A DNA stretch of 43,372 bases from Bacillota bacterium (lineage in GTDB: Bacteria; Bacillota; DTU014): contig JAAYAB010000178.1 in assembly GCA_012719595.1 (NCBI GenBank), positions 1 to 43,372 of the forward strand, read 5' to 3'. Positions 5,590 through 36,990 of the stretch are shown piece after piece. The number at the start of each line of letters is the position of its first letter. Positions within the stretch are counted from its first letter, which is position 1. The position numbers were made by a program, and so were the translations under genes. The notes beneath the pieces were generated by a model. The model was not told where the DNA came from and ran no database searches. It was given only the letters and a program-made list of their open reading frames with translations.

Positions 5590-5775
5590 ATAGATCGCTG
5601 ATTTGCGTTCGGATCCTCTGACGATGGTCTGCGCTCGGGTTTTCTAGCAATGATCTGCGTCGTGGTGTCCGACGATGGTCTGCGTTGCGGATCCGGACGA
5701 TGGTCTGTGTTCGGGTGCTCTGGATATGTTCCGCATCGGGGCATCCGGACGATCTGTGATCGGGTCCTCTCCGAC
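5590..5775. repeat. Degenerate tandem repeat, about 26-bp unit, seven copies
   Basis: Seven imperfect head-to-tail units of 24-33 bp can be read between the binding-protein gene and the next gene. Unit starts are at about 5590, 5623, 5650, 5674, 5699, 5726 and 5751. The best-conserved core is GATGGTCTGCGTTCGG and most units end in CCGAC or a variant. The array lies wholly between genes and its unit is not seen elsewhere in the window. Confidence 0.7.
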
Positions 5776-5908
5776 TTGCCTCTCGGGCTTCGATGGCTTC
5801 GACCCTCCCCTCGAGGGAGAAGACCGATCAAGGCGGGGGGAGGTTCGAGAGGACCCAATTCTCAAAAGCCCAGGATTTCGAGATTTGCAGTTGAGTGGGG
5901 GAATCGGA
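5776..5908. other. Gap before the URO-D-like gene: small stem-loops
   Basis: No gene is seen here. The stretch contains a perfect 10-base palindrome CCCTCGAGGG at 5808-5817, and a possible longer stem between CCTCCCC (5804-5810) and GGGGAGG (about 5837-5843). No T-tract follows, so a classical intrinsic terminator is not supported. A leader structure or mRNA stability element is possible but unproven. Confidence 0.35.
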
Positions 5909-6880
5909 TTGACCTCTAAAGAGCGTGTCTTGACAGCCCTGCGATGCCAGAAGCCCGATCGAGTTCCCTTCATGGAACTCGGAGTCGACTACGTGGTAGG
6001 TCAGAGGCTTTTGAAGAAAGAACGGTACGACCAAGGTGAACTGGCCGAGTTCCTCTGCTTGGATGGGATCGGCACGGGCCTTTATCCGACGATCTACGTA
6101 GAGCGGCGGACAGACGAGACAGGCCGCAGCTTCATTGTGGGCGGGCAGATCAAGGATCGCAGCGACTTGAGCATGGTCGATCCGGGCGACCCAACCGACC
6201 AGTTTCGGTACGATCAGGTCAAGAAGTTCGTCGACAAGCACGGCGACAGGTATGCGATCTTCGCAGCCACGAACATAGGGCTGGACCCGCTCCTGCTCAG
6301 CATGGGGCCGGAGAGCTTCGCGTACGCGCTCGTAGATGACCCCAAACTCGTCGAAGAGATCCTGGACATATACGCGGAGTGGAGCGCAGAGGTGGTGACC
6401 AGGCTCCAGCAGTGCGGGGTTGACATCATTTGGTTCACAGACGACATCGCGTTCAACAGCTCGATGATGTTCTCGCCGGAGTTTTTCCGCGAGGTGGCCA
6501 AACCCAGGCTCGCGAGGGTAATGGACCGAGTCAAGGTTCCGGCCATATTCCACAGCGATGGATTCATACTGCCAATCATCGATGACCTAATCGAGCTCGG
6601 ATTCAGCGGGATCCATCCCCTTGACCCCTGTGCTGTCGACATCGAACAGGTCAAAGAGAAGTATGGGTCGAGGATCTGTCTGGTTGGCAACATCGACCTC
6701 AGGTATACCTTGGTCAACGGAAAGCCACATGAGGTGGAGCAGGAAGTCAAGGACAGGGTCACGCGAATCGGGCGTGACGGAGGGTACATTCTCTCGAGCG
6801 CAAACACGATAACGAGTTACTGCAAAGACGAGAATATTCTGGCGATGAGGGATGCGCTCCTCAAGTACGGAGCAGTGTAG
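5909..6880 (+). CDS. Uroporphyrinogen decarboxylase (URO-D)-like protein, HSDG type
   Basis: TIM-barrel protein of the URO-D/methyltransferase superfamily, 323 aa. The frame is open far upstream, but similarity to the family begins at the TTG at 5909 (T-S-K-E-R-V-L-T-A-L), which has a GTGGGGG ribosome binding site about 7 bases before it; the upstream part is repeat DNA. Family motifs seen are PDRVPFMELG near the N terminus, WFTDDIAF near the middle, HSDG at about residues 215-218 and a C-terminal ILSSANTITSY. A second family member at 15897 has HSCG instead. Such proteins often occur in sugar clusters of Firmicutes; haem synthesis is unlikely here. A corrinoid- or C1-related methyl transfer is possible, but no corrinoid protein is encoded in the window. 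Confidence 0.85.
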   Translation: MTSKERVLTALRCQKPDRVPFMELGVDYVVGQRLLKKERYDQGELAEFLCLDGIGTGLYPTIYVERRTDETGRSFIVGGQIKDRSDLSMVDPGDPTDQFRYDQVKKFVDKHGDRYAIFAATNIGLDPLLLSMGPESFAYALVDDPKLVEEILDIYAEWSAEVVTRLQQCGVDIIWFTDDIAFNSSMMFSPEFFREVAKPRLARVMDRVKVPAIFHSDGFILPIIDDLIELGFSGIHPLDPCAVDIEQVKEKYGSRICLVGNIDLRYTLVNGKPHEVEQEVKDRVTRIGRDGGYILSSANTITSYCKDENILAMRDALLKYGAV

Positions 6881-6993
6881 TTGATGCGGGCTCTCCTGAC
6901 AGGGGTAAGCCCCGGCGCAACGTTTGTCCACATGGACAGCTTTGTCATCAACAAGTCAGTCATCAAGGAGTATAGCGGCGGAGGTTGAGAGCG

Positions 6994-7977
6994 ATGAGCA
7001 GAGTTGCTATCATCGGCAATGAGCTTGCCAATATCCCCTGGGAGGAGAGGCCTCAGGGTTGTTCGGATGTGGTTTGGCGCTCGACGATGAACCCGGTTAT
7101 CCCGAGAAACCTGATCCCATGTTCTAACAGCATTTTCAACAGTGCCGTGGTGCCGTTCAAGGGTGCATTTGCTGGCGTCTTCCGTGTGGACGACAGAGCC
7201 CGCAACATGAGGATACACGCAGGGCGGAGCGAGGACGCGATACACTGGCAGATCGAACACGAACCTATCCGCTTCAAATGCGATGATCCGGAGATCGGAA
7301 GGTTCGTATACGGGTACGATCCGAGAGTATGCTGGATCGAGGACAGGTACTACGTCACCTGGTGCAACTGGTACTACGGCCCCACGATAGGTGTCGCCTA
7401 CACTTATGACTTCAAGGATTTCTACCAGATAGAGAACGCCTACCTGCCCTTCAACCGCAACGGCGTGCTGTTCCCGCGGAAGATCAGAGGCAAGTATATG
7501 ATGCTGAGCCGGCCCAGCGACAACGGGCACACGCCTTTCGGCGACATATTCGTCAGTGAAAGCCCTGACATGATTCACTGGGGGCACCACCGCCATGTGA
7601 TGGGCACCGTAGGAGGTTGGCAGAGCACCAAGATCGGAGCAGGTCCGGTGCCTATAGAGACCACAGAGGGCTGGCTGCTGATCTACCACGGCGTGCTGAC
7701 GTCGTGCAACGGGTTCGTATACAGCGCCGGGGCCGCTCTTCTCGACCTTGAGGAGCCGTGGAAGGTAATGTACAGGACTGCGCCGTACATCATTTCACCG
7801 CAGACTCTGTACGAGTGCGTCGGAGATGTGCCGAACGTGGTGTTCCCCTGTGCAGCGCTGGCTGACGCACGTACGGGCAGGATCGCCGTCTATTACGGCG
7901 CAGCAGACACAGTGACCTGTGTGGCCTTTGCCAAGGTTGATGAGCTTGTTGATTTCATCAAGAGCAATTCGTTGTGA
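6994..7977 (+). CDS. GH130-like beta-mannoside phosphorylase / glycosidase
   Basis: Predicted five-bladed beta-propeller glycoside phosphorylase of family GH130 (327 aa). Typical members split beta-1,4-mannosides with phosphate to give mannose-1-phosphate plus mannose, glucose or GlcNAc. Family features seen are [20 protein letters not shown] near residues 40-65, [17 protein letters not shown] near 105-121 (containing the region of the catalytic Asp), [20 protein letters not shown], and GWLLIYHGV near 225. ATG 6994 is chosen over TTG 6985 because GGAGG ends 9 bases before it. Neighbours are a mannanase-like hydrolase, mannose-6-P isomerase and glucosamine-6-P deaminase, which fits mannosyl-GlcNAc or manno-oligosaccharide phosphorolysis. 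Family confident, exact substrate inferred. Confidence 0.82.
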
Positions 7978-7998
7978 GCTTCATGAGGAGGAATACAT

Positions 7999-8967
7999 GT
8001 GGATCGTCGCATGTTTGTGAAGGGGTTCACCTTCGGCTGGATGGGAAGAAGAGGCGAGTACCGAGAGCCGTACGCAGTGGACTCATTGAAGAAGCTGAAG
8101 GATACGGGATGTGCGTCGATAGCTTTCGCGTTCGATACACCTCAAGACACAGTGCTGTCCACCCGGGTGTACTTCGACTACGAAATGAGCCCGACAGACA
8201 AGGACATATGCTTCATCATTGACAAGGCCCATGAGATGGGCATGGAAGTCTGCCTGAAGCCTGTCATCAATCCTCGGGACGGACTGTGGCGCGCTTACAT
8301 CGACTTCCCCGACGGAGCAGACCACTACTGGAAGGCCTGGTTTGCGTCCTACCGAGCGTACATGCGCCACTATGCCGAGATCGCAGAGGAAACCGGGTGC
8401 GAGATGTACTGCATCGGGTGCGAAATGGTAGGCACGCAGAGAAAGACCGCCTACTGGCGGGAAGTGATCGATGTAGTCAGAGGGGTATATCACGGCATTG
8501 TGACATACAACGCCAACCATGGCAATGAGGACGGAATTGATTGGCTGGGAGACCTCGACCTCATAGGCATCAGCGGCTACTATCCTGTAGGCCGGCAGAC
8601 GGATGGCAGCGTAGAGGGCTTGATGGCGAACTGGCAGAAGGTGAAGGAGAAGCTCTACGGCATACACAAGAGATTCGGTCCGAACATCTACTTCGCAGAG
8701 ATCGGATGCCGGAGTGCCAAGGGATGCCTCGACATGCCCTGGGATGGTGCAACCGAGCTCCCGTATGATGAAGACGAGCAGGCGAAGTTCTACCTGACTG
8801 CGCTGAAGGCGTTCTGGGATGAGCCGTGGTTTTCCGGGTACCATTGGTGGGACTGGAGTCACAAGCTCTACAGCATAGACGAAGCCAAGACGGACAGGAG
8901 TTTCGGCATATACGGCAAGAAAGCTGAGGCCATCCTCAGAGAGTGGTATAGTAAAGAGGTGAAGTAG
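7999..8967 (+). CDS. GH113-like glycoside hydrolase (mannanase-type TIM barrel)
   Basis: Intracellular (no signal peptide) TIM-barrel hydrolase of 322 aa resembling GH113 endo-beta-1,4-mannanases. It shows FVKGFTFGW at the N terminus, KPVINPRDGLWRAYI, a probable acid/base Glu in IGCEM (about residue 142), LDLIGISGYYPV, and a probable nucleophile Glu in FAEIGCRS (about 234), followed by the WWDWS motif before the C terminus. The GTG start at 7999 has AGGAGGA 6 bases upstream, 22 bases after the GH130 gene. A cytoplasmic hydrolase next to a phosphorylase and an importer suggests final trimming of imported manno-oligosaccharides. Another glycosidase specificity in the same clan cannot be excluded. 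Confidence 0.78.
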   Translation: MDRRMFVKGFTFGWMGRRGEYREPYAVDSLKKLKDTGCASIAFAFDTPQDTVLSTRVYFDYEMSPTDKDICFIIDKAHEMGMEVCLKPVINPRDGLWRAYIDFPDGADHYWKAWFASYRAYMRHYAEIAEETGCEMYCIGCEMVGTQRKTAYWREVIDVVRGVYHGIVTYNANHGNEDGIDWLGDLDLIGISGYYPVGRQTDGSVEGLMANWQKVKEKLYGIHKRFGPNIYFAEIGCRSAKGCLDMPWDGATELPYDEDEQAKFYLTALKAFWDEPWFSGYHWWDWSHKLYSIDEAKTDRSFGIYGKKAEAILREWYSKEVK

Positions 8968-8996
8968 CGTAGTGGCATAGGGAGGAACACACGTCG

Positions 8997-10445
8997 GTGA
9001 ACGTCCTGGGACTGGAGGCGAGCACTTCCTCGGCCAAGGCTCTGGTCTATTCCACAGGGAGCGGAGTCCTTTGCAGCCGTAGTATGCCCTATGGGAAGTC
9101 CACAGGTGACGTAGTGTCACTCGACCCCGAAGGGATGTACGAACCGGTCGTAGAGTGTGCTCGTCTCGCCATTCAGGCGGCAGGTGTTCCGATCGATGCC
9201 ATTGGCCTCTGCGGCATCTGGCACAGCTTGCTGTTGCTTGACCGCAACAGATCTCCGCTGGGACGGATGATGACCTGGGCTGACCGACTGGCAGCCGACT
9301 GTGTGAACGTGCATCGTCAGGACCAACAACTCAGGGATTGGCTCTATCAGCGGTCTGGATGCTATGTCCACAGCATGTATCCTCTGTGGAAATGGAAATG
9401 CATGCGGGAGCGAATGGCGCCAGGCTTGGAGGATGCTCGGTACATCTCATCGCAGCCGGAGTACCTCTTTGAGAGAATGACTGGTGAATCCGCTGTCTCT
9501 CAGAACGTGGCCTCCGGCACCGGGCTCATGAACATACACACTCTGGACTGGGACGATTCGATCCTCGAGTTCGCAGAGCTCAGGCGAGAGAGCCTCTCGC
9601 CGATTTGGGCGTCCGAACACTTGGGCAGGCTGTCGGAAGAAGCGGCCAGGAGGATTGGGATACCCGCTGGCACGCCGGTGGTCATTGCCGGTGCGGACGG
9701 CGCGCTCACTCAGATCGGGTCGGGCGCTCTCAAGAGCGGCAGCATGACCATATCTGTAGGCACCAGCGCAGCCCTGAGGGTGGCGTTCCAAAAGCCTGTC
9801 CTGCCTGAGAACCCATCTACCTGGTGTTACTACACGGCTGAAGGCAAGTGGCTGGCCGGGGCTGCCACATCGGGAGCCGGCAACTGTGTTGAGTGGCTGA
9901 GACAGTCCATGTGCAGGGGAGTCCCGGATCTCGAGTCTCTGAACGTACTGACAGACGAAGTGGACGTCAGGAACGCTCCGATCTTTCTGCCCTTCCTCTA
10001 CGGCGAGCGATGCCCGGGCTGGCACGACAATAGGAGGGGCGGGTTCTTCGGGCTCACCCTCTCACACTCCCTCGGCGACCTGTACTACGCGATCCTCGAG
10101 GGTGTGCTCTTCAACCTGTATCAATGCTACCTGAAGCTGCTGAGCGTAGGCTGCGAACCGGAGCGGATCTACGTGTCTGGCGGCATCATTCGTTCACCCA
10201 AGTGGCTGCAGATGCTGGCAGACATCTTCCAGAGGGAGATCCTTGTTTCGAGCATAAGTGACGCCTCTACCATGGGCGCGATTGCTCTTGCGGCCAAGGC
10301 TATGGGTGAGATCAGCAGCCTGGAGCAATTCCCCGCTGAGGTAGATAGGACAGTGACTCCAGATAGCGGGAAGGCCAGCCTCTATCAGGAGAGGTTTGGC
10401 GAGTACATGGAATGGTACGAGAAGATGTCGGTGCTAGGTGCCTAG
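8997..10445 (+). CDS. FGGY-family carbohydrate kinase, gluconokinase-like
   Basis: Sugar kinase of 482 aa with the two-lobed FGGY architecture. The N-terminal phosphate-binding loop reads GLEASTSSAKALVY, the middle has GADGALTQIGSGALKSGSMT followed by ISVGTSAALR, and the C-terminal adenosine site has YVSGGIIRSPKWLQMLADIF. The GTG start follows a GGAGGA site at 8981-8986 and lies 29 bases after the GH113-like gene. It is followed by 6-phosphogluconate dehydrogenase, so phosphorylation of gluconate or a related aldonate feeding the pentose phosphate path is the simplest reading. FGGY substrates (xylulose, gluconate, others) are hard to tell apart from sequence alone. Confidence 0.85.
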   Translation: MNVLGLEASTSSAKALVYSTGSGVLCSRSMPYGKSTGDVVSLDPEGMYEPVVECARLAIQAAGVPIDAIGLCGIWHSLLLLDRNRSPLGRMMTWADRLAADCVNVHRQDQQLRDWLYQRSGCYVHSMYPLWKWKCMRERMAPGLEDARYISSQPEYLFERMTGESAVSQNVASGTGLMNIHTLDWDDSILEFAELRRESLSPIWASEHLGRLSEEAARRIGIPAGTPVVIAGADGALTQIGSGALKSGSMTISVGTSAALRVAFQKPVLPENPSTWCYYTAEGKWLAGAATSGAGNCVEWLRQSMCRGVPDLESLNVLTDEVDVRNAPIFLPFLYGERCPGWHDNRRGGFFGLTLSHSLGDLYYAILEGVLFNLYQCYLKLLSVGCEPERIYVSGGIIRSPKWLQMLADIFQREILVSSISDASTMGAIALAAKAMGEISSLEQFPAEVDRTVTPDSGKASLYQERFGEYMEWYEKMSVLGA

Positions 10446-10448
10446 AGC

Positions 10449-10600
10449 CCGGCCAGATGCATGGGACCGGGGCAGGTGTATGCGACCGGGCTAGGTGCGT
10501 GGGACCGGGTTAGGTGCATGGGATCGGGTCAAGCGCATGGAACCGGATGGGGTGAATGAGACTGAGTCGGGTGCGTAGCACCGAGTCAGGTGGATCGCAC
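10449..10600. repeat. Regular 19-bp tandem repeat, eight copies, before gnd
   Basis: Eight head-to-tail units each exactly 19 bp long, starting at 10449, 10468, 10487, 10506, 10525, 10544, 10563 and 10582. The consensus is close to CGGGTCAGGTGCATGGGAC. Units differ by several substitutions but no indels, and divergence rises toward the gnd side. It fills nearly the whole gap between the kinase stop and the gnd start. Confidence 0.88.
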
Positions 10601-10625
10601 CGACGTTGAGGCAGGGGGATGTGCG

Positions 10626-12083
10626 ATGCCAAAGAGCGACATTGGCCTGATAGGACTTGGGGTGATGGGACGGAACCTCGCCCTCAACATTGAGTCGAAA
10701 GGATACAGCGTCACCGTATACGATAGGGAGCCTGATGTCACAGAGCGGTTTGTCTCTGAGACAGCGGCGAATCGGCGTATTTCCCCTGCATACAGCTATA
10801 AAGAGCTAGTAGGATCGGTGTCGAGACCTCGCAAGATAATGCTCATGATAAAGGCCGGCGCGCCTGTCGATTCTGTTATCGATCAACTGCTTCCCCTTCT
10901 GGATAACGGAGACATAATCATAGACGGAGGCAACTCCTATTACAGAGACACCGATCGGCGTTACGACCGAGTCTCGGAGCTGGGCCTTTCATACATGGGC
11001 GTGGGAATCAGTGGCGGCGAGTATGGCGCGCTGAATGGTCCGTCGATCATGCCTGGCGGCGATGAGGAGACATACAACTCTGCACTGAAAGAGCTGCTCT
11101 CAGCCATCGCGGCCCAGGCAGAGGACGGTCCCTGCGTGACCTACATAGGGCCTCGATCCGCAGGCCACTATGTCAAGATGGTGCACAACTCGATAGAGTA
11201 CGGGGTCATGCAGGTCATTGCCGAGGCGTACGATGTGATGAGAAAGGTCCTCGGCATGAGTGCAGGGGAGATCAGCGGCACCTTCGCGGAGTGGAACCAG
11301 GAACAGAGTTCATTCCTGATGGAGATCACCGCCGAGGTGCTGGACAGGGCGGACGCTGAGACAGGCCAGCCATTGGTGGACATGATCCTCGACACTGCAG
11401 GGCAGAAGGGAACAGGCAAGTGGGGCGTACAGGACGCCTTTGACTTGGGCGTCGCCGTCCCCACTATCAGCGCGGCGGTTGAGGCCAGAATCATGTCAGC
11501 CATCAAGAGCGAGCGGATGCTCGTGTCCAGCTCGTTCGGCAGGACCGGACTGAGGGATTATGGAATTGGGGCCGTTCGAGGAGCGATCGAAGGCGCCACC
11601 GGATGCGATGCATCCTCGCTGCTGAGAGATCTGAAGGATGCGCTCTACCTCTCAACAGTGATGGCTTACGCAGAAGGAATGAAGATGCTCCAAGTGGCCT
11701 CGAGGGAATACGGCTACGGGCTCAGATGCCATGAGATCGCTCGAATCTGGAAGGCCGGATGTATCATTAGATCTTCACTGCTCCCACGAGTCCAGGAAGC
11801 CTATCTCGAGGATGCAGGCCAAGTCAGTCTGGTCACTACCAGGCAGTTCAGCGGCGACTTCAGGCGCAGAACAGGGGGCTGGCGGAGAGCCGTGATGACC
11901 GCCCTGGCTCATGGAGTCCCGGTTCCGGCCATGAGTGCCGCGCTATCGCACTTTGACAATCTGACAAGTCCATTCCTGTCTGCCAACCTCGTGCAGGCGC
12001 AGAGGGATTACTTCGGCGCGCATACCTATCAGCGGGTCGACCGCGATGGAGTCTTTCACACGGATTGGCTGAAAGGGCGGTAG
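10626..12083 (+). CDS. gnd: 6-phosphogluconate dehydrogenase (decarboxylating)
   Basis: Converts 6-phosphogluconate to ribulose-5-phosphate and CO2 with reduction of NAD(P)+. The 485-aa length is near that of the long GndA form. The Rossmann loop is GLIGLGVMGRNLALNIESKG at the N terminus, followed by IIIDGGNSYYRDT, the signature ISGGEYGALNGPSIMPGG near 128-145, KMVHNSIEYG near 183-192 (the catalytic Lys/His/Asn retained; most homologues have HNG) and the GQKGTGKW loop. The C-terminal tail FGAHTYQRVD...HTDW is typical. ATG 10626 has a GGGGGA site 7 bases before it; an upstream in-frame extension would begin in repeat DNA. It pairs with the gluconokinase-like gene. Confidence 0.96.
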   Translation: MPKSDIGLIGLGVMGRNLALNIESKGYSVTVYDREPDVTERFVSETAANRRISPAYSYKELVGSVSRPRKIMLMIKAGAPVDSVIDQLLPLLDNGDIIIDGGNSYYRDTDRRYDRVSELGLSYMGVGISGGEYGALNGPSIMPGGDEETYNSALKELLSAIAAQAEDGPCVTYIGPRSAGHYVKMVHNSIEYGVMQVIAEAYDVMRKVLGMSAGEISGTFAEWNQEQSSFLMEITAEVLDRADAETGQPLVDMILDTAGQKGTGKWGVQDAFDLGVAVPTISAAVEARIMSAIKSERMLVSSSFGRTGLRDYGIGAVRGAIEGATGCDASSLLRDLKDALYLSTVMAYAEGMKMLQVASREYGYGLRCHEIARIWKAGCIIRSSLLPRVQEAYLEDAGQVSLVTTRQFSGDFRRRTGGWRRAVMTALAHGVPVPAMSAALSHFDNLTSPFLSANLVQAQRDYFGAHTYQRVDRDGVFHTDWLKGR

Positions 12084-12162
12084 CACTGGTCGGTCTCACG
12101 CGTCGCGTTCGCCTCGCCGCTGATAGCAGAGCGCGCTGTCATGCGCCACGGTGTAGGCAGGA

Positions 12163-12179
12163 GCGCAGTGGCACTGCGC
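12163..12179. terminator. Inverted repeat between convergent gnd and EEP genes
   Basis: Perfect 8-base arms GCGCAGTG and CACTGCGC separated by one base lie in the 100-base gap between two convergent genes, just before the minus-strand stop. There is no strong T-tract on either side, so it may act as a bidirectional transcript end only weakly. Confidence 0.4.
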
Positions 12180-22164: not shown

Positions 22165-22344
22165 GCGACAGGTCACTGGGGCAGGGCTCATAGCCGCGGG
22201 TTCACTTGCACTTGGGTTCGGCTCATAGCCGCGGGGCCACTGGGGTTCGACCTATAGTGGCGGGTTCACTGGGGTTCGGCTCATAGTGGCTGGCCCACCG
22301 GGTCCAGCTGATAACGACGGGCTCATTGGAGGTTAGGCTCATGA
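22165..22344. repeat. Degenerate tandem repeat, about 29-bp unit, running into a start site
   Basis: About six imperfect units (28-36 bp) with core GGTTCACTGGGGTTCGGCTC then CATAG occupy the gap between the creatininase-like and TIM-barrel genes. Unit starts are near 22170, 22198, 22233, 22262, 22291 and 22319. The last unit aligns with the others while supplying the GGAGG ribosome binding site and the ATG at 22341. At the same place the other units have GGGGTT and CATAG. Confidence 0.7.
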
Positions 22345-23171
22345 GGATAGGCGTTTTCGTGAGCATGGAACAACTCCTGAGCGAGGGTCTAGGTGCAGTT
22401 CAGGAGATGGGTCTTGATAACTGCCAGCTCGGATGCTGGGACATGAACCTCTACACGACCGAGAACGCAGATAAGGTCGTCCGTGAGACTCAGAGAAAAG
22501 GAATTGACATCACCACGCTCTGGGCAGGATGGCCGGGCCCGAAGAAGTGGGACTTCATAGACGGTCCCCAGGTCTTGGGTCTAGTTCCTCGAGAGTACCG
22601 GCCGGAGAGGCTCGAGGCGCTGAAGCAGGCGGCGCGCTTTGCTGTGGCGATCGGGGTCTCGAGCATCACTACACACGTTGGCTTCATTCCGGAGAATCCT
22701 TCCGATCCTCTCTACCGAGAGGTGGTGGATTCAGTCAAGGAAATCGCAGAGTATTGCCGGGAGCGGAACCTGGAGTTCTGGTTTGAGACAGGCCAGGAAA
22801 CCCCGATCACGCTTCGCAGGGCGATAGAGGACACCGGGCTCGACAACCTCGGGGTGAATCTCGATCCTGCGAACTTGCTGCTGTATGGCAAGGCGAACCC
22901 GGTGGACGCAGTTGACGTGCTCGGTACGCTGGTCCGCGGTGTGCATGCCAAGGATGGGGAATACCCGACAGACGTGAGAGCTCTGGGAAGGGAATTACCG
23001 ATTGGGCAGGGAAGGGTGGACTTCCGCACCCTGATCTCCAAACTGGCTAGGCTTGGCTTCAATGGCTCCCTGACGATCGAGAGGGAGATCACAGGACCTG
23101 AACAGCGCAGAGATATCGTGAGAGGGCGGGACTATCTGCTGAAGATTCTCGAGGAGTTGTCGGCAAGATAA
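22341..23171 (+). CDS. Sugar phosphate isomerase/epimerase (xylose isomerase-like TIM barrel)
   Basis: AP-endonuclease-2 / xylose-isomerase-like TIM barrel protein (276 aa). Visible features are MRIGVFVSMEQLLSEGLGAVQEMGLDNCQLG at the N terminus, VSSITTHVGFIPE with a metal-site His, NLEFWFETGQETP with Glu, LGVNLDPANLLLYG with Asp, VRGVHAKDG with His, and LGFNGSLTIERE as the final Glu strand. ATG 22341 lies 8 bases after GGAGG; the frame is open to a GTG-like position upstream, within the repeat. It ends the run of plus-strand sugar genes. Probably an epimerase or isomerase for a keto-sugar; the substrate is unknown. Confidence 0.9.
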   Translation: MRIGVFVSMEQLLSEGLGAVQEMGLDNCQLGCWDMNLYTTENADKVVRETQRKGIDITTLWAGWPGPKKWDFIDGPQVLGLVPREYRPERLEALKQAARFAVAIGVSSITTHVGFIPENPSDPLYREVVDSVKEIAEYCRERNLEFWFETGQETPITLRRAIEDTGLDNLGVNLDPANLLLYGKANPVDAVDVLGTLVRGVHAKDGEYPTDVRALGRELPIGQGRVDFRTLISKLARLGFNGSLTIEREITGPEQRRDIVRGRDYLLKILEELSAR

Positions 23172-23205: not shown

Positions 23206-23234
23206 CACGCCCGCAGGACATGCCTGCGGGCGTG
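23206..23234. terminator. Strong hairpin between convergent genes
   Basis: A perfect 12-base stem (CACGCCCGCAGG with CCTGCGGGCGTG) around a five-base loop lies 35 bases after the TIM-barrel gene, in a convergent gap with the radical SAM gene. The tail ATTATGT is only weakly T-rich, but the position and strength fit a bidirectional terminator. Confidence 0.7.
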
Positions 23235-23400
23235 ATTATGTCGTGCGGGGGCGGGGGGCAAGCGTGCATCATAGTCGCAGGCTTGCCTGGTGGTCGCGGG
23301 CATGTGGGGCAGTCGCAGGCCTGCTTCGTGGTCGCGGCGGGCATGACGGGCGGCCGAGCGCTTCGCAAGCAGCCAGCATCGCAAGCAGTGCGTCAGCGTA
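23235..23400. repeat. GC-rich degenerate repeats in the convergent gap
   Basis: Two loose copies of a unit of about 40 bp beginning AGTCGCAGGC (near 23273 and 23311) and containing GTGGTCGCGG are followed by two shorter CGCAAGCAG copies near 23365-23385. On the other side of the hairpin GCAAGTGTC is repeated at about 23189 and 23198. No gene is seen. Confidence 0.55.
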
Positions 23401-23406
23401 TTGGAA

Positions 23407-24321
23407 TCAGGCCAGTCGAGTCAAACCCACTTCTCGCGCGATCCGCAGCGCCTCGCTGTACTCTTGTCGGGTGATCCGGCGGTCGAGCGGGGGATGGAAC
23501 CGCGCCTCGTAGGCCGGATGGTACTGGTCCATGATGTTGACGTAGGTGTTCGGCGAGATTTCCTCTGCAATAAACCGCAGCACGGCCTCAGTTCCGGCAA
23601 GATTCCTAGGCAGCACCAGGTGGCGAACGAGGAGACCCCGGTACGCGATGCCTGAGCTGTCCACTCTGAGATCGCCTACCTGCCTGTGCATCTCGAGAAG
23701 AGCTCGTTGAGCTGCTTCCCAGTATCCTCGCGCTCCGGTGAGGCGAGCGGCCACTGAAGAATCGCCGAATTTGACATCAGGCATGTAGATGTCAACGACT
23801 CCGTCGAGCAGGCGAAGAGCAGCAGCCGATTCATATCCTCCGCAGTTCCACACGAGAGGAACACTGAGGCCAGCTGCACATGCCAGATCAAGGGCGGAGA
23901 GTATCTGCGGGAGGAAGTGCGTCGGCGTGACCAGGTTGATGTTGTGGCAGCCCCTGTCCTGGAGGTCGATCATGATCTCAGCGAATCTCTCGAGAGACAC
24001 CTCGTACCCGTCCCTCAGGTGGCTGATGTCGTAGTTCTGGCAGAAGACGCACTTCAGATTGCAGCCAGTAAGAAAGATTGTGCCCGAGCCCCGCGAGCCC
24101 ACTAGCACATCTTCTTCACCAAAATGAGGCCCGTAGCTGGAGATCTCGATTGCATCATCTGCTCTGCAAAAACCCTTCGCACCTGCCAGCCGGTTGACTC
24201 CGCACTCGTGCGCGCATAGGTCACAGGCCTCAAGCCGCTGCCTGGCCTCTTCTGCTCTATCGAACAACGCTTCTTTCTCCCACAACCTGCGGTACGATGG
24301 TGTGACACCCACTGCCCTCAC
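23407..24321 (-). CDS. Radical SAM protein, pyruvate formate-lyase-activating-enzyme-like
   Basis: Iron-sulfur radical S-adenosylmethionine enzyme of 304 aa. The cluster-binding motif FLTGCNLKCVFCQNYDIS (C-x3-C-x2-C) is at about residues 83-100. An additional Cys-rich segment CDLCAHECGVNR lies near 33-44, followed by GFCRADD. Both are typical of the stand-alone PflA-like family seen with or without AmmeMemo partners. VVDIYMPDVKFGD and LVLPRNLAGT are other family markers. The start is a GTG at the end of a five-base repeat run rich in GAGG; a second GTG three codons downstream is possible. No glycyl-radical enzyme is in the window, so the target is unknown. Confidence 0.88.
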   Translation of the reverse strand: MRAVGVTPSYRRLWEKEALFDRAEEARQRLEACDLCAHECGVNRLAGAKGFCRADDAIEISSYGPHFGEEDVLVGSRGSGTIFLTGCNLKCVFCQNYDISHLRDGYEVSLERFAEIMIDLQDRGCHNINLVTPTHFLPQILSALDLACAAGLSVPLVWNCGGYESAAALRLLDGVVDIYMPDVKFGDSSVAARLTGARGYWEAAQRALLEMHRQVGDLRVDSSGIAYRGLLVRHLVLPRNLAGTEAVLRFIAEEISPNTYVNIMDQYHPAYEARFHPPLDRRITRQEYSEALRIAREVGLTRLA

Positions 24322-24345
24322 CTCACCTCACCTAACCTAACCCAA
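24316..24345 (-). repeat. Five-base repeat run over the radical SAM ribosome binding site
   Basis: On the plus strand CCTCA x3, CCTAA x2 and CCCAA follow each other; on the coding strand this reads TGAGG/TTAGG units, each resembling a Shine-Dalgarno sequence. The predicted GTG start lies within the last unit, so the number of units would alter spacing or frame. Confidence 0.6.
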
Positions 24346-24493
24346 CCCGTAGCCTCGTTTCCAGTCGTGTTCCGCTCCCGCAATCCACTTCAACTATTCG
24401 CTCTCGCGTTCCACTCTCGCGACACGATCATCTGCTTCTCTACCTCTAGTGTAACACGATTTGCAGTAATGCGTATTGTAGGCAGGAGGACTG

Positions 24494-24552
24494 AGTGTAA
24501 GGCACACTGGGCGATCGGGCTTAGTGTAAAGCACATCGGAGCGGTCGGGCGG
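24494..24552. repeat. Two-copy direct repeat upstream of the DinB-like gene
   Basis: Two adjacent imperfect units of 29-30 bp start with AGTGTAAGGCACA and AGTGTAAAGCACA and both end in a CGATCGGGC/CGGTCGGGC-like sequence. They lie just before the promoter at 24558. The rest of the gap from 24346 to 24493 shows no gene. Confidence 0.55.
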
Positions 24553-25270: not shown

Positions 25271-25360
25271 GCTGAGTGTGGCCCAGTGTGGCTGAGTCGG
25301 GTCAGTCCGGTTGAGTCAGGTCAGTCCGGCTGAGTCAGGCTCAGTCAGGCTCAGTCAGGA
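25271..25360. repeat. Degenerate tandem repeat with 19-bp and 10-bp periods
   Basis: The convergent gap holds copies of GTCAGTCCGGYTGAGTCAG (19 bp, near 25301 and 25320) flanked by shorter units such as GCTCAGTCAG twice. The unit is unlike that of any other gap. No hairpin terminator is obvious. Confidence 0.7.
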
Positions 25361-28499: not shown

Positions 28500-28655
28500 T
28501 TATATCTGGGGGGTGGGTCGGCGGTGCCCGTTCGTGGCTGGACTGGCGGGTGCCTGGACTGACAGGCGACTGGGCTCGCGGGCGGCCTGGGCTGGCGTGT
28601 GGTTTGGCCGGCGGTCGGTTCGACCGGCGGCCGGCGACTCGGTTGGCGACTCGGA
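28500..28655. repeat. GC-rich degenerate repeats in the leader of the ABC-2 operon
   Basis: Loose, overlapping units such as GGCGACTGGGCT, GGCGGGTGCCTGGACT, CCGGCGGTCGGTTCGACC and GGCGACTCGG x2 cover about 150 bases just before the ATPase. The last unit runs into its GGAGGTG binding site. An open frame crosses the region but has no start signal or protein-like content. Confidence 0.55.
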
Positions 28656-28665
28656 GGTGACGACA

Positions 28666-29685
28666 ATGCTGGCGATCAAGACAAATGCCCTAACAAAGGT
28701 GTTCAGAACCAAGGTCAAGGAGTCCGGACTGCGAGGCAGCGTTTCGGCGCTTTTTCGGCCTCACCATCGCGATGTGTATGCCGTTCGCGGCATCGACCTC
28801 ACAGTCGAAAAGGGCGAGGTCCTGGCCTTCATAGGCCCCAACGGTGCAGGCAAGTCCACCACAATCAAAATGCTGACCGGCATCCTTCACCCGACCTCCG
28901 GCAGCGCTACGGTTCTGGGCCTTGACCCTCTTCGCAAGCGGAAGCAGCTCGCGTACAGGATTGGGTCTGTATTCGGACAGAAGTCGCAGCTGTGGTTTCA
29001 CCTACCTCCGCAGGACAGCTTCAGGCTGCTGGCAGGCATATACGAGCTGGACGAGAGGCAATACCGAGAGAGATTCGGCGCTTTGGTCGAGCTGTTCGAA
29101 CTCGAGGATCTGCTCAAAGTGCCTGTGCGCAAGCTGTCGCTGGGACAGCGGGTACGATGCGAGATCGCCGCGTCCTTGCTTCACAGACCCGAGGTGATCT
29201 TCCTTGACGAGCCTACGATCGGCCTCGACGTAGTGGCGAAGCAGCGAATCCGAGACCTGATCGCTCGTCTGAATCGGGAAGAGGGAACGACTATCTTCCT
29301 GACCAGCCACGACGCGGGAGACATCGAGCGCGTGTGCAAGCGAGTCATCATCATAAACCACGGCGAAGTCGTGCTGGATGAAAGCGTAAAGACCTTGAGG
29401 TACAGCTACCTTCAGAAGAAGATCATCAGCGTCAAGTACGCTGAGAAGACCAAGGTCGACATACCGGGCGTGGATAAGACAAGGGAATCCGAATATGCGG
29501 CGCGCATCGAGGTTTCTACAGCCAGACGCCCGCTCAGGGAAGTCGTCGCAGAGCTGATGGGGCTCGGAGAAGTCGTCGACATTACTATCTCAGACCAACC
29601 CCTGGAGGAGATCATCGCCGGCATCTACATGGACCGAGGCAGGGGAGGTGAAGCAGATGAGCCGGACACTGGCACTGGCCGATGA
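28666..29685 (+). CDS. ABC-2-type transporter ATP-binding protein
   Basis: Cytoplasmic ATPase of an exporter (339 aa). Walker A GPNGAGKST lies at about residues 57-65, the signature is LSLGQRVR, Walker B is VIFLDEPTIGLD and the switch His is in TSHDAGD. A C-terminal extension with GEVVLDESVKTLR and a regulatory-like domain is typical of the group that partners the two-permease ABC-2 family below. ATG 28666 has CGGAGGTGACG 6-9 bases upstream; the long open frame before it is repeat DNA. It overlaps the first permease's ribosome binding site and ends 26 bases into that gene, so the three genes are coupled. Confidence 0.95.
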   Translation: MLAIKTNALTKVFRTKVKESGLRGSVSALFRPHHRDVYAVRGIDLTVEKGEVLAFIGPNGAGKSTTIKMLTGILHPTSGSATVLGLDPLRKRKQLAYRIGSVFGQKSQLWFHLPPQDSFRLLAGIYELDERQYRERFGALVELFELEDLLKVPVRKLSLGQRVRCEIAASLLHRPEVIFLDEPTIGLDVVAKQRIRDLIARLNREEGTTIFLTSHDAGDIERVCKRVIIINHGEVVLDESVKTLRYSYLQKKIISVKYAEKTKVDIPGVDKTRESEYAARIEVSTARRPLREVVAELMGLGEVVDITISDQPLEEIIAGIYMDRGRGGEADEPDTGTGR

Positions 29686-31295: not shown

Positions 31296-31400
31296 GCTGG
31301 CGGGCCATTTCCACTTTGAGCTGCGCCGAAACATACAGGATAGCGGCGAAGGCATCTGTGGCTCGCGTGGACATACCCCCCTCGAACTACATATGCGATT

Positions 31401-31410
31401 CTTGTACAAG
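31401..31410. promoter_or_regulatory. CTTGTACAAG palindrome
   Basis: Perfect 10-base palindrome, 95 bases upstream of the paired TTGTACGTACAA-type sites and sharing their TTGTAC half. It may be a further, weaker binding site for the same regulator. Confidence 0.35.
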
Positions 31411-31504
31411 CTCTGGTGAATTCTTACAGTCGCGCATTGTGTAGCAGGTGAAATGTTGTGGAAGTTGATGCCAAGGGTGAGAGTCTCGGACCCCCAGAAC
31501 GCTT

Positions 31505-31561
31505 TTGTACGTACAACGCTGTAAAATACAGGCAGTGCGAAGGGTGACAATGTACGTACAA
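31505..31561 (+). promoter_or_regulatory. Pair of AraR-like operators around a possible promoter
   Basis: TTGTACGTACAA (31505-31516, perfect palindrome) and ATGTACGTACAA (31550-31561) have centres 45 bases apart. They match the centre of the Bacillus AraR operator, ATTTGTACGTACAAAT. A TAAAAT box (31522-31527) lies between them, without a clear -35. Two in-phase operators for cooperative looping is the known AraR arrangement. No araR or arabinose gene is in view and the next gene is 360 bases away. Confidence 0.55.
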
Positions 31562-31920
31562 TAGCGTTGCGGGTACCTTAGAGAATCACCCTTGGTGGTT
31601 TCTGGATTGTGGTTATGCGAGCTAAACCAGGCTGGGAAGATCAGCCAACAGGGTTCCAGACGCGCAACGTTCATATGTACCTGAGGGGATACCCATTGTT
31701 GCTGACGGGAATACCCATAGGCTCGCAGCCGTCAACCCGTGACAGACAGCGCTTGCTGATAGGAACTGTTGAGGTGTGGCATGACCGGCGGCGGTGCCCG
31801 TACGCGGCGGGGCACGCACGCGGCGCAGCCTGACGGATCCGGTAGCGTCGCTGCGGCCGAAAACGCCTCTGAACCGTCCTTCCTGTTTACTTTGCTGCCT
31901 CGACATTGTAACCTCACGGT

Positions 31921-33669
31921 ATGGGGATTTCACTTCGTACATACCTCCACATTCTAGCGCGCTATCTGGCACACCAGAAGGGGCGCTTTGCTGAGTTGAC
32001 TATCCTGGTACTCCTGAGTATCGGGCTGCAGATAGTCAACCCGCAGATCATGCGATTCTTCATTGACGCGGCTTCGGCGGGCAGATCGCTGAACGAGCTG
32101 CTAGTCGCGGCAATCGGGTTTCTCGTTGCTGCGCTCGTTCAGCAGGCGGTTTCAGTCGGCGCAACGTACCAAGGGGAATATGTCGCGTGGAGTGCCACCA
32201 ATGCACTGCGTGAGGACCTCGCTGCTCACAGCCTCTCACTTGACATGCAGGTCCACAACGACAAGAGCCCCGGCGAGTTCATTGAGCGCATCGAGACAGA
32301 CGCCACGAACTTCTCCAACTTCTTCTCCCAGCTGGCAGTCAGAATCGCCGGAAATCTGCTTCTACTGGTGGGGATAGTGGTTGCCCTGATCATTGTCAAT
32401 CCTCTCTTGGGAGCAGCCTTCTTCGCCTTCATCGTCCTGGCGCTGACAGCCTTGGCTCTGGTTAGGGGGATAGCCGTGCCTCATCAGAAGGCTCAGCGGG
32501 AGGCAGAGACTGAGCTGTTTGCCTTTCTCGAGGAGCGCCTGGTTGGCACCGAAGACATCCGTTCCTGCGGGGCGGTGAACTTCGTAATCAACAGGCTGTA
32601 TAGACTGCACTCAGTGATACTGGACAAGTGGTGGAAAGCCTCGCTGATGGGACTCGGGATAAGCGCGACCGGCGGCTTGATGATGATGGCAGGGTACGGC
32701 CTGGCCTTTCTGTCAGGCTACGTGCTGTATCAGAGAGGGCTGATCAGTCTTGGAACTGCCTATCTGATTCTTCACTACACGAATCTTCTTTCGCGTCCTG
32801 TGCGCGAGCTGACGCGCCAGGTAGAGAGCCTTCAGAATATCGGCGCCACCGTCGAGCGAATGGAAGAGCTCTTTTCGATGAGCAGCTCGATTCCAGATGG
32901 ACCTGGAGCGCCGATTCCGGCAGGCGAGCCGCTGTCACTCGAGTTTCAGAACGTATCGTTTTCCTATACCGAAGGTAAACCCGTGCTGAACAGCGTGAGT
33001 CTCTACCTTCCTGCCGGACGCGTCCTTGGGTTGCTGGGCCAAACTGGTGGCGGCAAGACCACGATCGCCCGCCTGCTTTTCCGCCTGTACGATCCGTCGG
33101 AGGGCTCCATACGGCTGGGTGGGGTGGATATCAGAGAGGCGAAGATTGCCGAGCTGCGGCAGCGGGTGGCGTATGTGACGCAGGACGTGCAGCTATTCCA
33201 GGCTAGTGTCAGAGACAACATCACCTTCTTTGACCGCAGTATCCCTGACGACCGCATACTCGAAGTGATCGAGTCGCTTGGCCTGATGGACTGGTACAGG
33301 ACTTTGCCTGCTGGGCTTGACACCCGGCTGCAGAGCGGGGGCAGGAGTCTGTCTGCGGGAGAGGCTCAGTTGCTGGCGCTCACCAGGGTATTCTTACGCA
33401 ATCCCGGTCTAGTGATCATGGATGAGGCGTCTTCCCGGCTGGATCCGGCTACCGAACGGCTGGTGGAACATGTACTGGATCGGCTGCTTGCCGGGCGGAC
33501 AGCGGTGATCATCGCACACCGGCTAGGCACAGTGAACCGCTCTGACGACATCCTCATCATAGATGGCGGCGAAAACGTGGAGTTCGGCGACAGACTGGAG
33601 CTCTTGGCGAGGCCCACTTCTCGGTTCTACAGACTGCGCCAGGCGGGATTGGAGGAGTTGCTCGCATGA
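31921..33669 (+). CDS. Heterodimeric ABC exporter subunit 1 (transmembrane plus ATPase domains)
   Basis: Full-length half-transporter of 582 aa. Residues 1 to about 320 form a six-helix exporter domain ([55 protein letters not shown]). The ATPase domain has Walker A GQTGGGKT at about 373-380, Q-loop YVTQDVQLF, the altered signature LSAGEAQ near 477, Walker [13 protein letters not shown] with catalytic Glu, and His in IAHRLG. The non-canonical LSAGE fits the degenerate site of a heterodimeric exporter. The ATG has no clear ribosome binding site and may follow closely on a promoter. It overlaps the second subunit by four bases (ATGA). Confidence 0.93.
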
Positions 33670-34979
33670 GTGCGGTTTCACTGCCTGCCTGGAAGGTCAT
33701 CTTTGCGACGATAAGATTCCGTCCCTGGCTGTGGATTGGCAACTTCATCGCGATGATGGTGCTCATGCTGTTCTTCCAGGTGCCGGCCCTGGTGTTGCGG
33801 GAGTTCTTCAACCTGCTGTCTGGATCGGAGCCGGCAGGCCTGAGTGTGTGGACGCTGGTTGCGCTCATGTTTGCAGGAGAGCTGGTGCGGTTGTCCGGCG
33901 TGCTGGGACTCATTCGCACGAACACGCCGTTTTTCGTCCACTGCATGGCTATGCTGAGACGCAACATGCTCCGCCATATCCTCAGCCGCCCTGGAGCGTC
34001 TGCTCTCCCGGATTCGCCTGGTGAGGCCCTCAGCCGGTTCCGCGGGGACGTGTCCGAGATACCGCTGTTTGCACTGTGGATGAACGATCTCCTGGGCCTG
34101 GTGGCGTTCAGCAGCGTCGCTCTGGTCACGATGGCGCGGATCAACGCGACTGTCACGACGCTGGTGGTGTTGCCGTTCATAGTCGTCGGGGTGATTGCAA
34201 ACCTCACGTCCAGTCAGGTGGAGCGATTCCGTAGGGAGAGCCGTCGACATGCAGGCATTGTCATGGGTTTCATAGGAGAGCTGTTTGGCGCCGTTCAGGC
34301 TGTGAAGGTAGCAACCGCGGAACAAGGGGTGCTGCTGGGCTTGCTCCCCCGCGATGCGGGCGCGCTTTACTGGAACAGCAATCCGGTCGACGATCCGGGC
34401 TCGTTCATGGTGCCGCCTCGGGCCGCATACACTGCACAGATACCTAGACTCTTCAGTGACACCCTGAGGGACAACATCCTGATGGGAATGCACGCAGACG
34501 ATGAGAGCATTCGGCAGGCTCTCGACCTTGCTGTGCTCGAGCAGGATCTCGGTTGGTTGGAGAAGGGTCTTGATACGATAGTCGGTCCCAAGGGCGTCAA
34601 ACTGTCCGGAGGGCAGCTGCAGCGCACTGCTGCAGCCCGGATGTTTGTCAGGAATCCTCAGCTGCTGGTATTCGACGACCTCTCGAGCGCCCTCGATGTC
34701 GAGACCGAGAGAGTGCTCTGGGAAAGGGTGTTTGAGCGCGAAGGAGCGACGTGCCTCGCAGTGTCCCACAGGAAAGTGGCCCTTCGCCGAGCAGACAACA
34801 TCATAGTGATGAAGGGCGGCCGCGTGGAGGCCCAGGGCAAGCTCGACGACCTGCTTGAGACATGTGAGGAAATGCGCGAGATCTGGTTCGGCGGAGGCCA
34901 GGAGGATCAGGGGCACGAGGAGGACGCCGGATCTGAACTTCGAAGCACTGAAGAAGCAAGAACAATAGGCTATCAGTAG
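33666..34979 (+). CDS. Heterodimeric ABC exporter subunit 2 with internal deletion (no Walker A)
   Basis: This 437-aa protein starts as a normal exporter subunit and ends as a normal ATPase domain, but the middle is missing. Residues about 1-218 cover the first four helices and the coupling segment [13 protein letters not shown]. At about 219-222 (base 34320-34330) it jumps to [16 protein letters not shown], which in full-length relatives comes just after Walker A. Helices 5-6, the start of the ATPase domain and Walker A (roughly 150-190 residues) are absent, in frame. Q-loop [10 protein letters not shown], signature LSGGQLQR (near 312), Walker [13 protein letters not shown] with Asp in place of Glu, and VSHRK remain. 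It is probably non-functional, or an assembly artefact. Confidence 0.88.
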
Positions 34980-35017
34980 TAGAAACAGTCCGAGCATGCT
35001 TGTTTTTCGGCAAATCC

Positions 35018-35049
35018 AGCGCTCTCGTTCGCCACAGAACGGGAGCGCT
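35018..35049 (+). terminator. Hairpin terminator after the heterodimeric ABC exporter
   Basis: A 13-base stem AGCGCTCTCGTTC / GAACGGGAGCGCT (one G-U pair) with a six-base loop is followed by TCATTATT. It lies 39 bases after the exporter stop and is a reasonable intrinsic terminator. Confidence 0.7.
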
Positions 35050-35109
35050 TCATTATTCGCAGCTCGTTGCAGGAATGCGGATATCGATGCCGAATTGACT
35101 CACTGTCGA

Positions 35110-35123
35110 GCGAACATGTTAGC
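35110..35123 (+). promoter_or_regulatory. LacI-type operator candidate upstream of the GH4 gene
   Basis: GCGAACATGTTAGC, a near-perfect palindrome centred on AACATGTT, lies 89 bases before the GH4 start and 9 bases after TTGACT (35095-35100), a possible -35 box. The same core occurs at 38091 and 38257 beside the LacI-family gene. Confidence 0.62.
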
Positions 35124-35211
35124 AACACAACCGAAGACCGGTGCAGTCGTCTCCTTGACAGCTACGGGAGCGTGCATGCCGGTCCGGGTCCAACATCTAG
35201 GAGGAGAACAG

Positions 35212-36699
35212 ATGGCATTCAAGGTTGCGTTCATAGGCGCTGGGAGCATCGGCTTTACCCGACGGCTTCTGCGAGATATCCTGTCAGTACCTGAGTTCCG
35301 CGACATCGAGGTAGCGTTTACCGATATCAACGAGCGAAACCTCGACATGGTCACGAAGCTTTGCCAGCGGGACATCGATGCGAATGGCCTGAACATCCGC
35401 ATTCAGTCTACGCTGAACCGCAGAGAGGCCCTGCGTGGTGCTAGGTACGTTTTCAATCTTGTTAGAGTTGGCGGCCTCGACGCTTTCAAGCTGGACATAG
35501 AGATCCCGCTCAAATACGGTGTCGACCAGTGTGTCGGAGACACGCTCTGCGCCGGCGGCATCATGTACGGCCAGCGGGGAATACCGGTTATGCTGGACTT
35601 CTGCAAAGACATCAGGGAAGTGGCAGAACCTGATTGCTTTTTCCTCAACTACGCGAATCCCAATGCGATGATGACTTGGGCTGCAAACCATTGCGGCGGC
35701 GTCAACACTATCGGGCTCTGCCATGGCGTCCAACACGGGCACCGCGATATTGCCAACGCCCTGGGCCTCAAGCAGGAGGAAGTCGACATCATCTGTGCGG
35801 GTATCAACCATCAGACTTGGTACATACAGATAAAGCACAAGGGCGAGGACATGACAGGCAAGCTGCTCGAAGCTCTTGAGAAGCACCCGACGTACAGCAA
35901 GACCGAGAAGGTGCGCATCGATATGCTGCGCCGGTTCGGATACTTCAGCACCGAGTCCAATGGCCATTTGAGCGAGTACGTTCCATGGTACCGGAAGCGG
36001 CCTGAAGAGATAAACGACTGGATTGACGTTGGTTCGTCATGGATACATGGCGAGACCGGAGGGTACCTCAGGGTCTGCACTGAAGGGCGGAACTGGTTCG
36101 AGACCGACTTCCCGAACTGGATGAACGCGGCGCCCCACACCTACGACCCTCGAAAGAGGAGCAATGAACACGGATCGCACATTTTGGAGGCACTTGAGAC
36201 AGGCAGGGTTTACAGAGGGCATTTCAACGTCGTGAACAACGGCTGCATCACTAACCTCCCGGACGACGCCATAGTCGAGGTGCCCGGGTACGTCGACGCG
36301 AATGGGATTTCCATTCCAAGGGTCGGGGATCTTCCACTCGGGTGCGCCGCAGTCTGCAACGCCAGCATTTGGGTCCAGCGCCTGGCCGTCAAGGCAGCTG
36401 TGGAAGGCAACGACTTGCTGCTTCGACAGGCCATGATGATGGATCCATTGGTAGGCGCTGTTTGCAATCCGCCGGAGATCTGGCAGCTGGTCGACGAGAT
36501 GCTCGTGGCTCAGGAGCAGTGGCTGCCTCAGTACGGGCAAGCCATAGCCGAGGCCAAGCAAAGACTAGCAGCCGGCAATCTCATCCCGACGAAGGAAAGC
36601 TACCAGGGAGCGGCCCGGCTCAAGGTCAGGTCCGTAGAGGAGATGGCACAGGACCGGGAGAACGCCACGAAGAACGCAGCGGCCGCAGACAAGGCATAG
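35212..36699 (+). CDS. melA: GH4-family alpha-galactosidase-like glycosidase
   Basis: NAD+- and Mn2+-dependent glycosidase of family GH4 (495 aa), acting by oxidation-elimination. The N-terminal Rossmann motif is FIGAGSIGFTRRLLRDI, followed by the AFTDINERNLD strand. Metal and active-site regions are FLNYANPNAM, IGLCHGVQHG with Cys and His, and CAGINHQTWYI. The C-terminal half has NNGCITNLPDDAIVEVPGYVD, typical of MelA-like members. ATG 35212 follows TAGGAGGAG by 5 bases; an open frame upstream is ignored. The gene is cytoplasmic and precedes a LacI regulator. Alpha-galactosidase is the best match, but alpha-glucosidase or glucuronidase activities occur in the family. Confidence 0.85.
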   Translation: MAFKVAFIGAGSIGFTRRLLRDILSVPEFRDIEVAFTDINERNLDMVTKLCQRDIDANGLNIRIQSTLNRREALRGARYVFNLVRVGGLDAFKLDIEIPLKYGVDQCVGDTLCAGGIMYGQRGIPVMLDFCKDIREVAEPDCFFLNYANPNAMMTWAANHCGGVNTIGLCHGVQHGHRDIANALGLKQEEVDIICAGINHQTWYIQIKHKGEDMTGKLLEALEKHPTYSKTEKVRIDMLRRFGYFSTESNGHLSEYVPWYRKRPEEINDWIDVGSSWIHGETGGYLRVCTEGRNWFETDFPNWMNAAPHTYDPRKRSNEHGSHILEALETGRVYRGHFNVVNNGCITNLPDDAIVEVPGYVDANGISIPRVGDLPLGCAAVCNASIWVQRLAVKAAVEGNDLLLRQAMMMDPLVGAVCNPPEIWQLVDEMLVAQEQWLPQYGQAIAEAKQRLAAGNLIPTKESYQGAARLKVRSVEEMAQDRENATKNAAAADKA

Positions 36700-36990
36700 G
36701 CGAATGGGCTAATGCCATGCCGCAAGACATGCGGACTGCGATCGTGCGGCTGCAACAATGCGGACGATACGGACTGCAACGGTGCGACAGCAATGAGGCG
36801 GACTGCAATGATCTGGGATCAGGACTAGGGCGAGCACGCACTGTGACGAGGGCGGCAGCGCGCCGCTGGGACGCCTGCCGCCCGGCTGCACGAGCAGGAA
36901 TAGCATAAGTATGTGTCCAATGTAATCCCTGGAATCGCTGCAAACAGCGCAGGTGGCGCCTGTTTTCCATTGGGCAGAAAGGAGTTCGAG
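36700..36990. repeat. Degenerate repeat in the gap between GH4 and lacI-type genes
   Basis: From about 36728 to 36815 units of 22-26 bp with the core GCGGACTGCAAYGRTGCG follow each other three to four times. The remaining gap has no gene or clear promoter. GAAAGGAG at 36977-36984 is the binding site for the regulator gene. Confidence 0.55.

What the first reader, a model, noticed from the sequence alone, without database searches (positions are those of the whole stretch)
5590..36990. Most long intergenic gaps carry a private degenerate tandem repeat
Arrays or loose repeats with different units fill at least nine gaps: 5590-5775, 10449-10600, 22165-22344, 23235-23400, 24316-24345, 24494-24552, 25271-25360, 28500-28655 and about 36728-36815. 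Units range from 5 to about 40 bp and do not resemble each other, so they are not one mobile repeat family. They lie almost wholly outside genes and are diverged inside each array, suggesting continuous local duplication followed by mutation. This looks like a genome-wide mode of spacer growth, or a trait of the replication/repair system of this lineage.
Basis: seen in the sequence. Interest (0 to 1): 0.78.

Follow-up and report, generated by a model that had tools for sequence, protein, structure and literature searches.

The report
Private tandem repeats filling gene spacers
In this uncultured bacterium many spacers between genes have grown by repeated copying of a short local stretch that then mutated; this is a known kind of genome change, here unusually common compared with the organism's nearest available relative.

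Summary
The arrays are real. "Most long gaps" is overstated: 8 of 18 window gaps of at least 80 bp are significant (9 counting the 28534 array), and 23% across a 517 kb sample of the genome. The window is a rich patch.

The best explanation is mutational: local tandem duplication of a 10-60 bp unit, then point divergence. Arrays are private (83 of 87 have no relative elsewhere in 830 kb). They also occur inside genes, where 31 of 34 have periods divisible by three, against 16 of 52 between genes (Fisher p 1.5e-8). Several fill the spacer from stop codon to ribosome-binding site, and some units contain the neighbour's stop codon or start region. One operon spacer is 240 bp with a ten-copy 16-bp array, but 24 bp in the same-family genome G001.

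Array coverage of spacers is about 11-fold higher than in G001, so the lineage-trait idea is partly supported. Mismatch repair, Ku, Y-polymerases and reverse transcriptases do not separate the two genomes. A Halanaerobiaceae MAG shows the same more densely, and unique local satellites of uneven taxonomic density are published. Verdict: true, a new member of a known kind.

The parts
5596..5765 (+). degenerate array, about 25-bp unit GACGATGGTCTGCGTCGGGTATCCG, about 7 copies, starts 12 bp after the stop codon of the SBP gene (4297-5583)
   Evidence: TRF score 79; shuffle p 0.001; copies laid out
10433..10603 (+). 19-bp array, 9 copies, fills the spacer from the FGGY kinase stop codon (10443-10445, inside the first copy) to just before the 6PGD ribosome-binding site (likely true start ATG 10626)
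   Evidence: TRF scores 95 and 52; shuffle p 0.001, z 32; copies; single place in own genome
22171..22345 (+). 29-bp array, 6 copies; last copy contains GGAGG and the ATG (22341) of the downstream TIM-barrel gene
   Evidence: TRF score 111; shuffle p 0.001; copies
23235..23400 (+). loose repeat with shift of 38 bp between convergent genes, after a probable terminator hairpin at about 23206-23236
   Evidence: shuffle p 0.001, z 7.3; below TRF threshold
24316..24347 (-). 5/10-bp repeat (CCTCA on + strand) at the start of the radical SAM gene
   Evidence: TRF score 43; shuffle p 0.001
24494..24552 (+). two-copy loose repeat, shift about 29 bp; weakest of the nine
   Evidence: shuffle p 0.003, z 4.8; not found by TRF
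25271..25359 (+). 10/20-bp array GCTGAGTCAGGCTCAGTCCG between convergent genes
   Evidence: TRF score 101; shuffle p 0.001
28534..28659 (+). 16-bp array, about 8 copies, ends at the ribosome-binding site of the ABC ATPase gene (likely start ATG 28666, downstream of the longest ORF start)
   Evidence: TRF score 57; shuffle p 0.001; copies
31788..31825 (+).
   Evidence: TRF score 55; shuffle p 0.001
36731..36811 (+). 15-bp array CGGACTGCAATGATG, about 5 copies
   Evidence: TRF score 49; shuffle p 0.001; copies

Best explanation
The arrays are the product of a genome-wide mutational process, short local tandem duplication (unit about 10-60 bp), followed by point mutation and further copy gain. 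It hits genes and spacers alike. Selection removes frame-breaking events in genes and lets spacers keep them, so spacers grow from a short seed, often one that includes a neighbour's stop codon or ribosome-binding site. The molecular step (inferred, not shown) is most likely replication slippage or template misalignment between short direct repeats, then unequal exchange or slippage once two copies exist. This lineage has, or tolerates, a higher net rate than its nearest available relative.
For: Above chance: 25 of 218 gaps with TRF score >=50 against 0.4 in shuffles; 62.9 bp/kb intergenic against 3.7 coding. Same copy identity in genes and gaps (81% and 83%), and a reading-frame filter: 31/34 coding periods divisible by 3 against 16/52 intergenic, Fisher p 1.5e-8. 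Private units: 83 of 87 without relatives elsewhere in 830 kb. Identity spread 60-100%, with adjacent copies somewhat more alike than distant ones in most multi-copy arrays. Spacers filled edge to edge, with units that contain the neighbouring stop codon (10433, L003:16582) or RBS/ATG (22341). Overlap of 12 of 45 gene 3' ends against 2 of 51 gene 5' ends, as expected if duplications across a stop codon are harmless and those across a start are not. Syntenic permease pair: 240-bp spacer with ten 16-bp copies against 24 bp in G001; 60 array-free syntenic spacers differ by a median of 13.5 bp. Lower density in the same-family genome.
Against: No sister strain was available, so no duplication event was seen directly and the rate is inferred. 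Array gaps minus the arrays are still longer (median 166 bp) than array-free gaps of >=50 bp (140 bp), so long gaps may simply catch more arrays. Only one syntenic pair with an array could be compared. The 3'-end excess was found post hoc and depends on start-codon calls. Very similar young arrays may be lost in a short-read MAG, so density and age are biased; arrays are only mildly enriched at contig ends (1.5% against 0.9% coverage).
Confidence: 0.8

Rival explanations
1. The arrays are functional intergenic elements (iteron-like protein sites, RNA leaders or attenuators) kept by selection at each gene.
For: Most lie between co-directional genes and some cover the RBS; many units are G-rich on the coding strand.
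Against: No shared motif, no Rfam match, no convincing hairpin excess in units (mean z -0.23, p 0.19), no significant strand skew beyond other gaps (p 0.09), no preferred position in the gap (p 0.37), and the same process inside genes in frame.
Confidence: 0.07
2. Ordinary background: any bacterial genome of this size and composition shows as many, and the window was noticed because it is a rich patch.
For: Window is richer than the rest of the genome (8/18 against 34/164, p 0.036); cyanobacterial loci have similar array counts (43.5 per 100 kb noncoding); G002, G009 and G041 are as rich or richer.
Against: G001, bacilli and gammaproteobacterial loci have about 2-8 times fewer noncoding arrays (18.1, 12.2 and 5.5 against 43.9 per 100 kb) and G001 has eight times fewer coding arrays.
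Confidence: 0.25
3. Assembly or binning artefact of a 313-contig MAG.
For: Genome is fragmented; two arrays sit at contig ends (L004 start, L018 end).
Against: Copies inside arrays differ from one another, which collapse or mis-joining does not create; frame is kept in genes; arrays occur in the interior of contigs and on contigs of normal GC.
Confidence: 0.03
4. Loss of a repair function (mismatch repair, or gain of end-joining, error-prone polymerase or reverse transcriptase) causes the duplications.
For: Lineage contrast with G001.
Against: MutS and MutL are present in both; Ku and RVT_1 absent in both; two Y-family polymerases in both. Other factors (RecJ, SbcCD, RecG, Pol I exonuclease) were not tested.
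Confidence: 0.1

Closest known systems
Prokaryotic satellites/minisatellites (Subirana and Messeguer 2019, PMC6749651)
   Same: Short-unit local arrays, about 40% of bacterial satellites unique and unrelated to others, very uneven density among species, multiples of three in coding arrays; Methanobrevibacter ruminantium described as growing unrelated satellites throughout its genome.
   Different: That survey asked for at least four regular copies in reference genomes; here most arrays have 2-4 detectable copies, are more diverged, and often fill a spacer from stop codon to RBS. Own density at >=4 copies is 12 per Mb, in the range of its richest bacteria, though the finder differs.
Halanaerobiaceae bacterium CSSed165cm_254 (G041, L022)
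   Same: Private degenerate arrays in 25 of 66 gaps, none related to another.
   Different: Denser (161 against 44-46 per 100 kb noncoding), AT-richer, different lineage.
Minisatellites among small variable segments of bacterial species (PMC2884548)
   Same: Short repeats thought to change by replication slippage between short homologies below the RecA threshold.
   Different: There a minor class (2-4% of variable loci) with >=90% identity between copies.
Marine Beggiatoaceae TAACTGA intergenic direct repeats (PMC4679880)
   Same: Intergenic direct repeats in many gaps of one genome (abstract).
   Different: There one shared unit in all places, here a different unit in each gap.

Membership tests
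Prokaryotic satellites/minisatellites of local origin | Head-to-tail copies above chance | tested here: met
Prokaryotic satellites/minisatellites of local origin | Unit of about 10-200 bp | tested here: met
   periods 9-211, mostly 11-60; the CCTCA array at 24316 is below this
Prokaryotic satellites/minisatellites of local origin | At least four copies (definition of PMC6749651) | tested here: inconclusive
   TRF gives >=4 copies in 10 of 87 arrays; alignment extension gives 4-10 in most window arrays
Prokaryotic satellites/minisatellites of local origin | Unique sequence, not transposed | tested here: met
Prokaryotic satellites/minisatellites of local origin | Copy-number variation among strains | not testable with these tools
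   no second genome of the species or genus held
Dispersed mobile repeat family (MITE, REP/BIME, TAACTGA type) | Same unit at many places | tested here: not met
CRISPR | Conserved repeats with variable spacers | tested here: not met
   contiguous degenerate copies without spacers
Structured RNA element | Match to a covariance model or excess hairpin stability | tested here: not met

The most novel reading that the evidence does not exclude
A heritable change in replication or repair in this genus (and independently in the Halanaerobiaceae MAG) makes short tandem duplication the dominant way in which spacers are born, so that many intergenic regions are expansions of gene-border sequence rather than decayed genes.
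Probability: 0.25. Interest if true: 0.6.

Novelty: new member of a known kind. Interest (0 to 1): 0.38.

Why it matters
It gives a clean case in which the origin of bacterial spacer DNA can be read from the sequence: seeds at gene borders, copies in all stages of decay, and a reading-frame filter inside genes. If strain data confirm an elevated rate, the contrast with the same-family genome would be a way to look for the gene that controls short tandem duplication in bacteria.

Tried and rejected
Hairpin-forming units as the driver: units looked palindromic by eye, but DNA folding of doubled units against shuffles and against gap segments gave no convincing excess. Coding-strand G-richness as an R-loop signal: 25 of 25 array-bearing same-strand gaps are G-skewed, but array-free gaps are skewed too and the difference is not significant. 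Preferred position in the gap: none overall. Arrays breaking the assembly: only mild enrichment at contig ends. Mismatch repair loss, Ku end joining, reverse transcriptase, Y-family polymerases: no difference between own genome and G001. A fused-protein query for more syntenic gaps in G001 was prepared but not run.

Full report
What was asked.

The observation. Tandem Repeats Finder lists arrays in six of the nine intervals at a score of 49 or more and in a seventh at 43; 23235-23400 and 24494-24552 are seen only by a more lenient self-alignment. Against 1000 dinucleotide-preserving shuffles of each interval the best off-diagonal self-alignment has p 0.001 in eight and 0.003 in 24494-24552. 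In the window 8 of 18 gaps of at least 80 bp are significant at p<=0.01, and a ninth array (28534) was hidden because the longest ORF of the ABC ATPase runs through it; the RBS-preceded ATG at 28666 is the likelier start (sequence; Pfam match begins at residue 121 of the long ORF).

Genome-wide. The window is contig C81 of a 3.0 Mb, 313-contig MAG (G000, 94% complete). I fetched 517 kb, later 830 kb, of it and called genes with a hexamer score. Of 218 gaps of at least 50 bp 25 carry an array of score >=50, against 0.4 in shuffled gaps; arrays cover 62.9 bp per kb of these gaps and 3.7 bp per kb of coding sequence. By per-gap self-alignment 23% of gaps >=80 bp (29% of those >=250 bp) are significant. 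So 'most long gaps' is too strong, and the window is a rich patch (8/18 against 34/164, Fisher p 0.036).

Privacy. With blastn only 4 of 87 arrays match anything outside themselves in 830 kb; three of these are neighbours in the same contig and one is a 211-bp unit shared by two contigs. There is no mobile family.

The key signature. In 830 kb, 34 arrays lie inside genes and 52 between genes, with the same copy identity (81% and 83%). Thirty-one of the 34 coding arrays have a period divisible by three, against 16 of the 52 intergenic arrays (Fisher p 1.5e-8). One of the three exceptions is the mis-called window array at 28534. The simplest reading is one process that duplicates short stretches anywhere, filtered by selection for reading frame in genes.

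Anatomy. Several arrays run from one gene border to the next. In the window the first 19-bp copy at 10433 holds the stop codon of the FGGY kinase gene, and the array ends just before the RBS of the 6PGD gene; at 22324-22345 the last 29-bp copy holds the GGAGG and the ATG of the downstream gene; in L003 the first of ten 16-bp copies holds the TAA stop. TRF-defined arrays overlap gene 3' ends in 12 of 45 cases and 5' ends in 2 of 51 (post hoc). This fits duplication seeded in short ancestral spacers: a duplication that includes a stop codon leaves the protein unchanged, one that includes a start may not. The best comparison is the permease pair at L003:15525-17546: spacer 240 bp with the array here, 24 bp between 63-65% identical orthologues in G001; 60 array-free syntenic spacers differ by a median of 13.5 bp.

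Comparison with relatives. The class holds only one other genome, G001, of another genus of the family. It has 5.5 bp/kb of array in gaps (11 times less), 18.1 against 45.7 noncoding arrays per 100 kb, and 0.6 against 4.7 coding arrays per 100 kb. The per-gap contrast is smaller (12% against 23%, odds ratio about 2, p 0.045 without the window). Among other material, cyanobacterial loci have similar counts, bacilli and gammaproteobacteria fewer, the phylum members G002 and G009 more from small samples, and the Halanaerobiaceae MAG behind L022 (G041) has the phenomenon in stronger form: 53 noncoding arrays in 157 kb, 25 of 66 gaps against 1 in shuffles, none related to another. The trait therefore varies strongly among lineages and recurs.

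Mechanism. Shown: local origin, divergence in place, frame filter, and, from one syntenic comparison, a longer spacer where an array lies. Inferred: slippage or template misalignment at short homologies as the copying step, followed by unequal exchange; a published strain comparison assigns short repeats below the RecA threshold to replication slippage (PMC2884548). Not found: hairpin-prone units, a significant strand bias beyond that of other gaps, or a difference from G001 in MutS, MutL, Ku, Y-family polymerases or reverse transcriptase.

Relation to what is known. Subirana and Messeguer (PMC6749651) describe short, unique, locally arisen satellites in prokaryotes with very uneven density and with multiples of three in genes, and single out Methanobrevibacter ruminantium as growing unrelated satellites throughout its genome. 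The present case is of that kind. With at least four copies and unit >=10 bp TRF gives 12 per Mb here, in the range of the richest bacteria in that list, although the methods differ. What is added is the spacer-filling anatomy, the seeds at gene borders, and the contrast with a same-family genome. The taxon is unnamed; the phylum is probably Bacillota in the wide sense, judged only from a remembered match of one relative's length (2,936,195 bp, G016) to Syntrophomonas wolfei.

Verdict.

Noticed in passing
window 31505-31516 and 31550-31561: Two copies of the palindrome TTGTACGTACAA / ATGTACGTACAA, 45 bp apart, upstream of the ABC exporter genes; resembles from memory the AraR/GntR-type operator of Bacillus subtilis.
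   Followed up: partly
window 23206-23236: Strong inverted repeat CACGCCCGCAGG-acatg-CCTGCGGGCGTG after the gene ending at 23171, a probable terminator, directly before the loose array.
   Followed up: no
L022 and L240-L259 (G041): A Halanaerobiaceae MAG with extreme density of private tandem arrays: 15 in 10.9 kb of L022, 53 noncoding arrays in 157 kb.
   Followed up: yes
L137:2968-3624 and L230:7591-8037: A 211-bp tandem unit shared between two contigs of the own genome, the only array that looks like a dispersed family.
   Followed up: no
own-genome contigs C123, C156, C30, C1, C150: The longest contigs sampled carry no or almost no intergenic arrays, while C81 (window), C9 and C137 are rich; heterogeneity among contigs p 0.04 by permutation.
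   Followed up: partly
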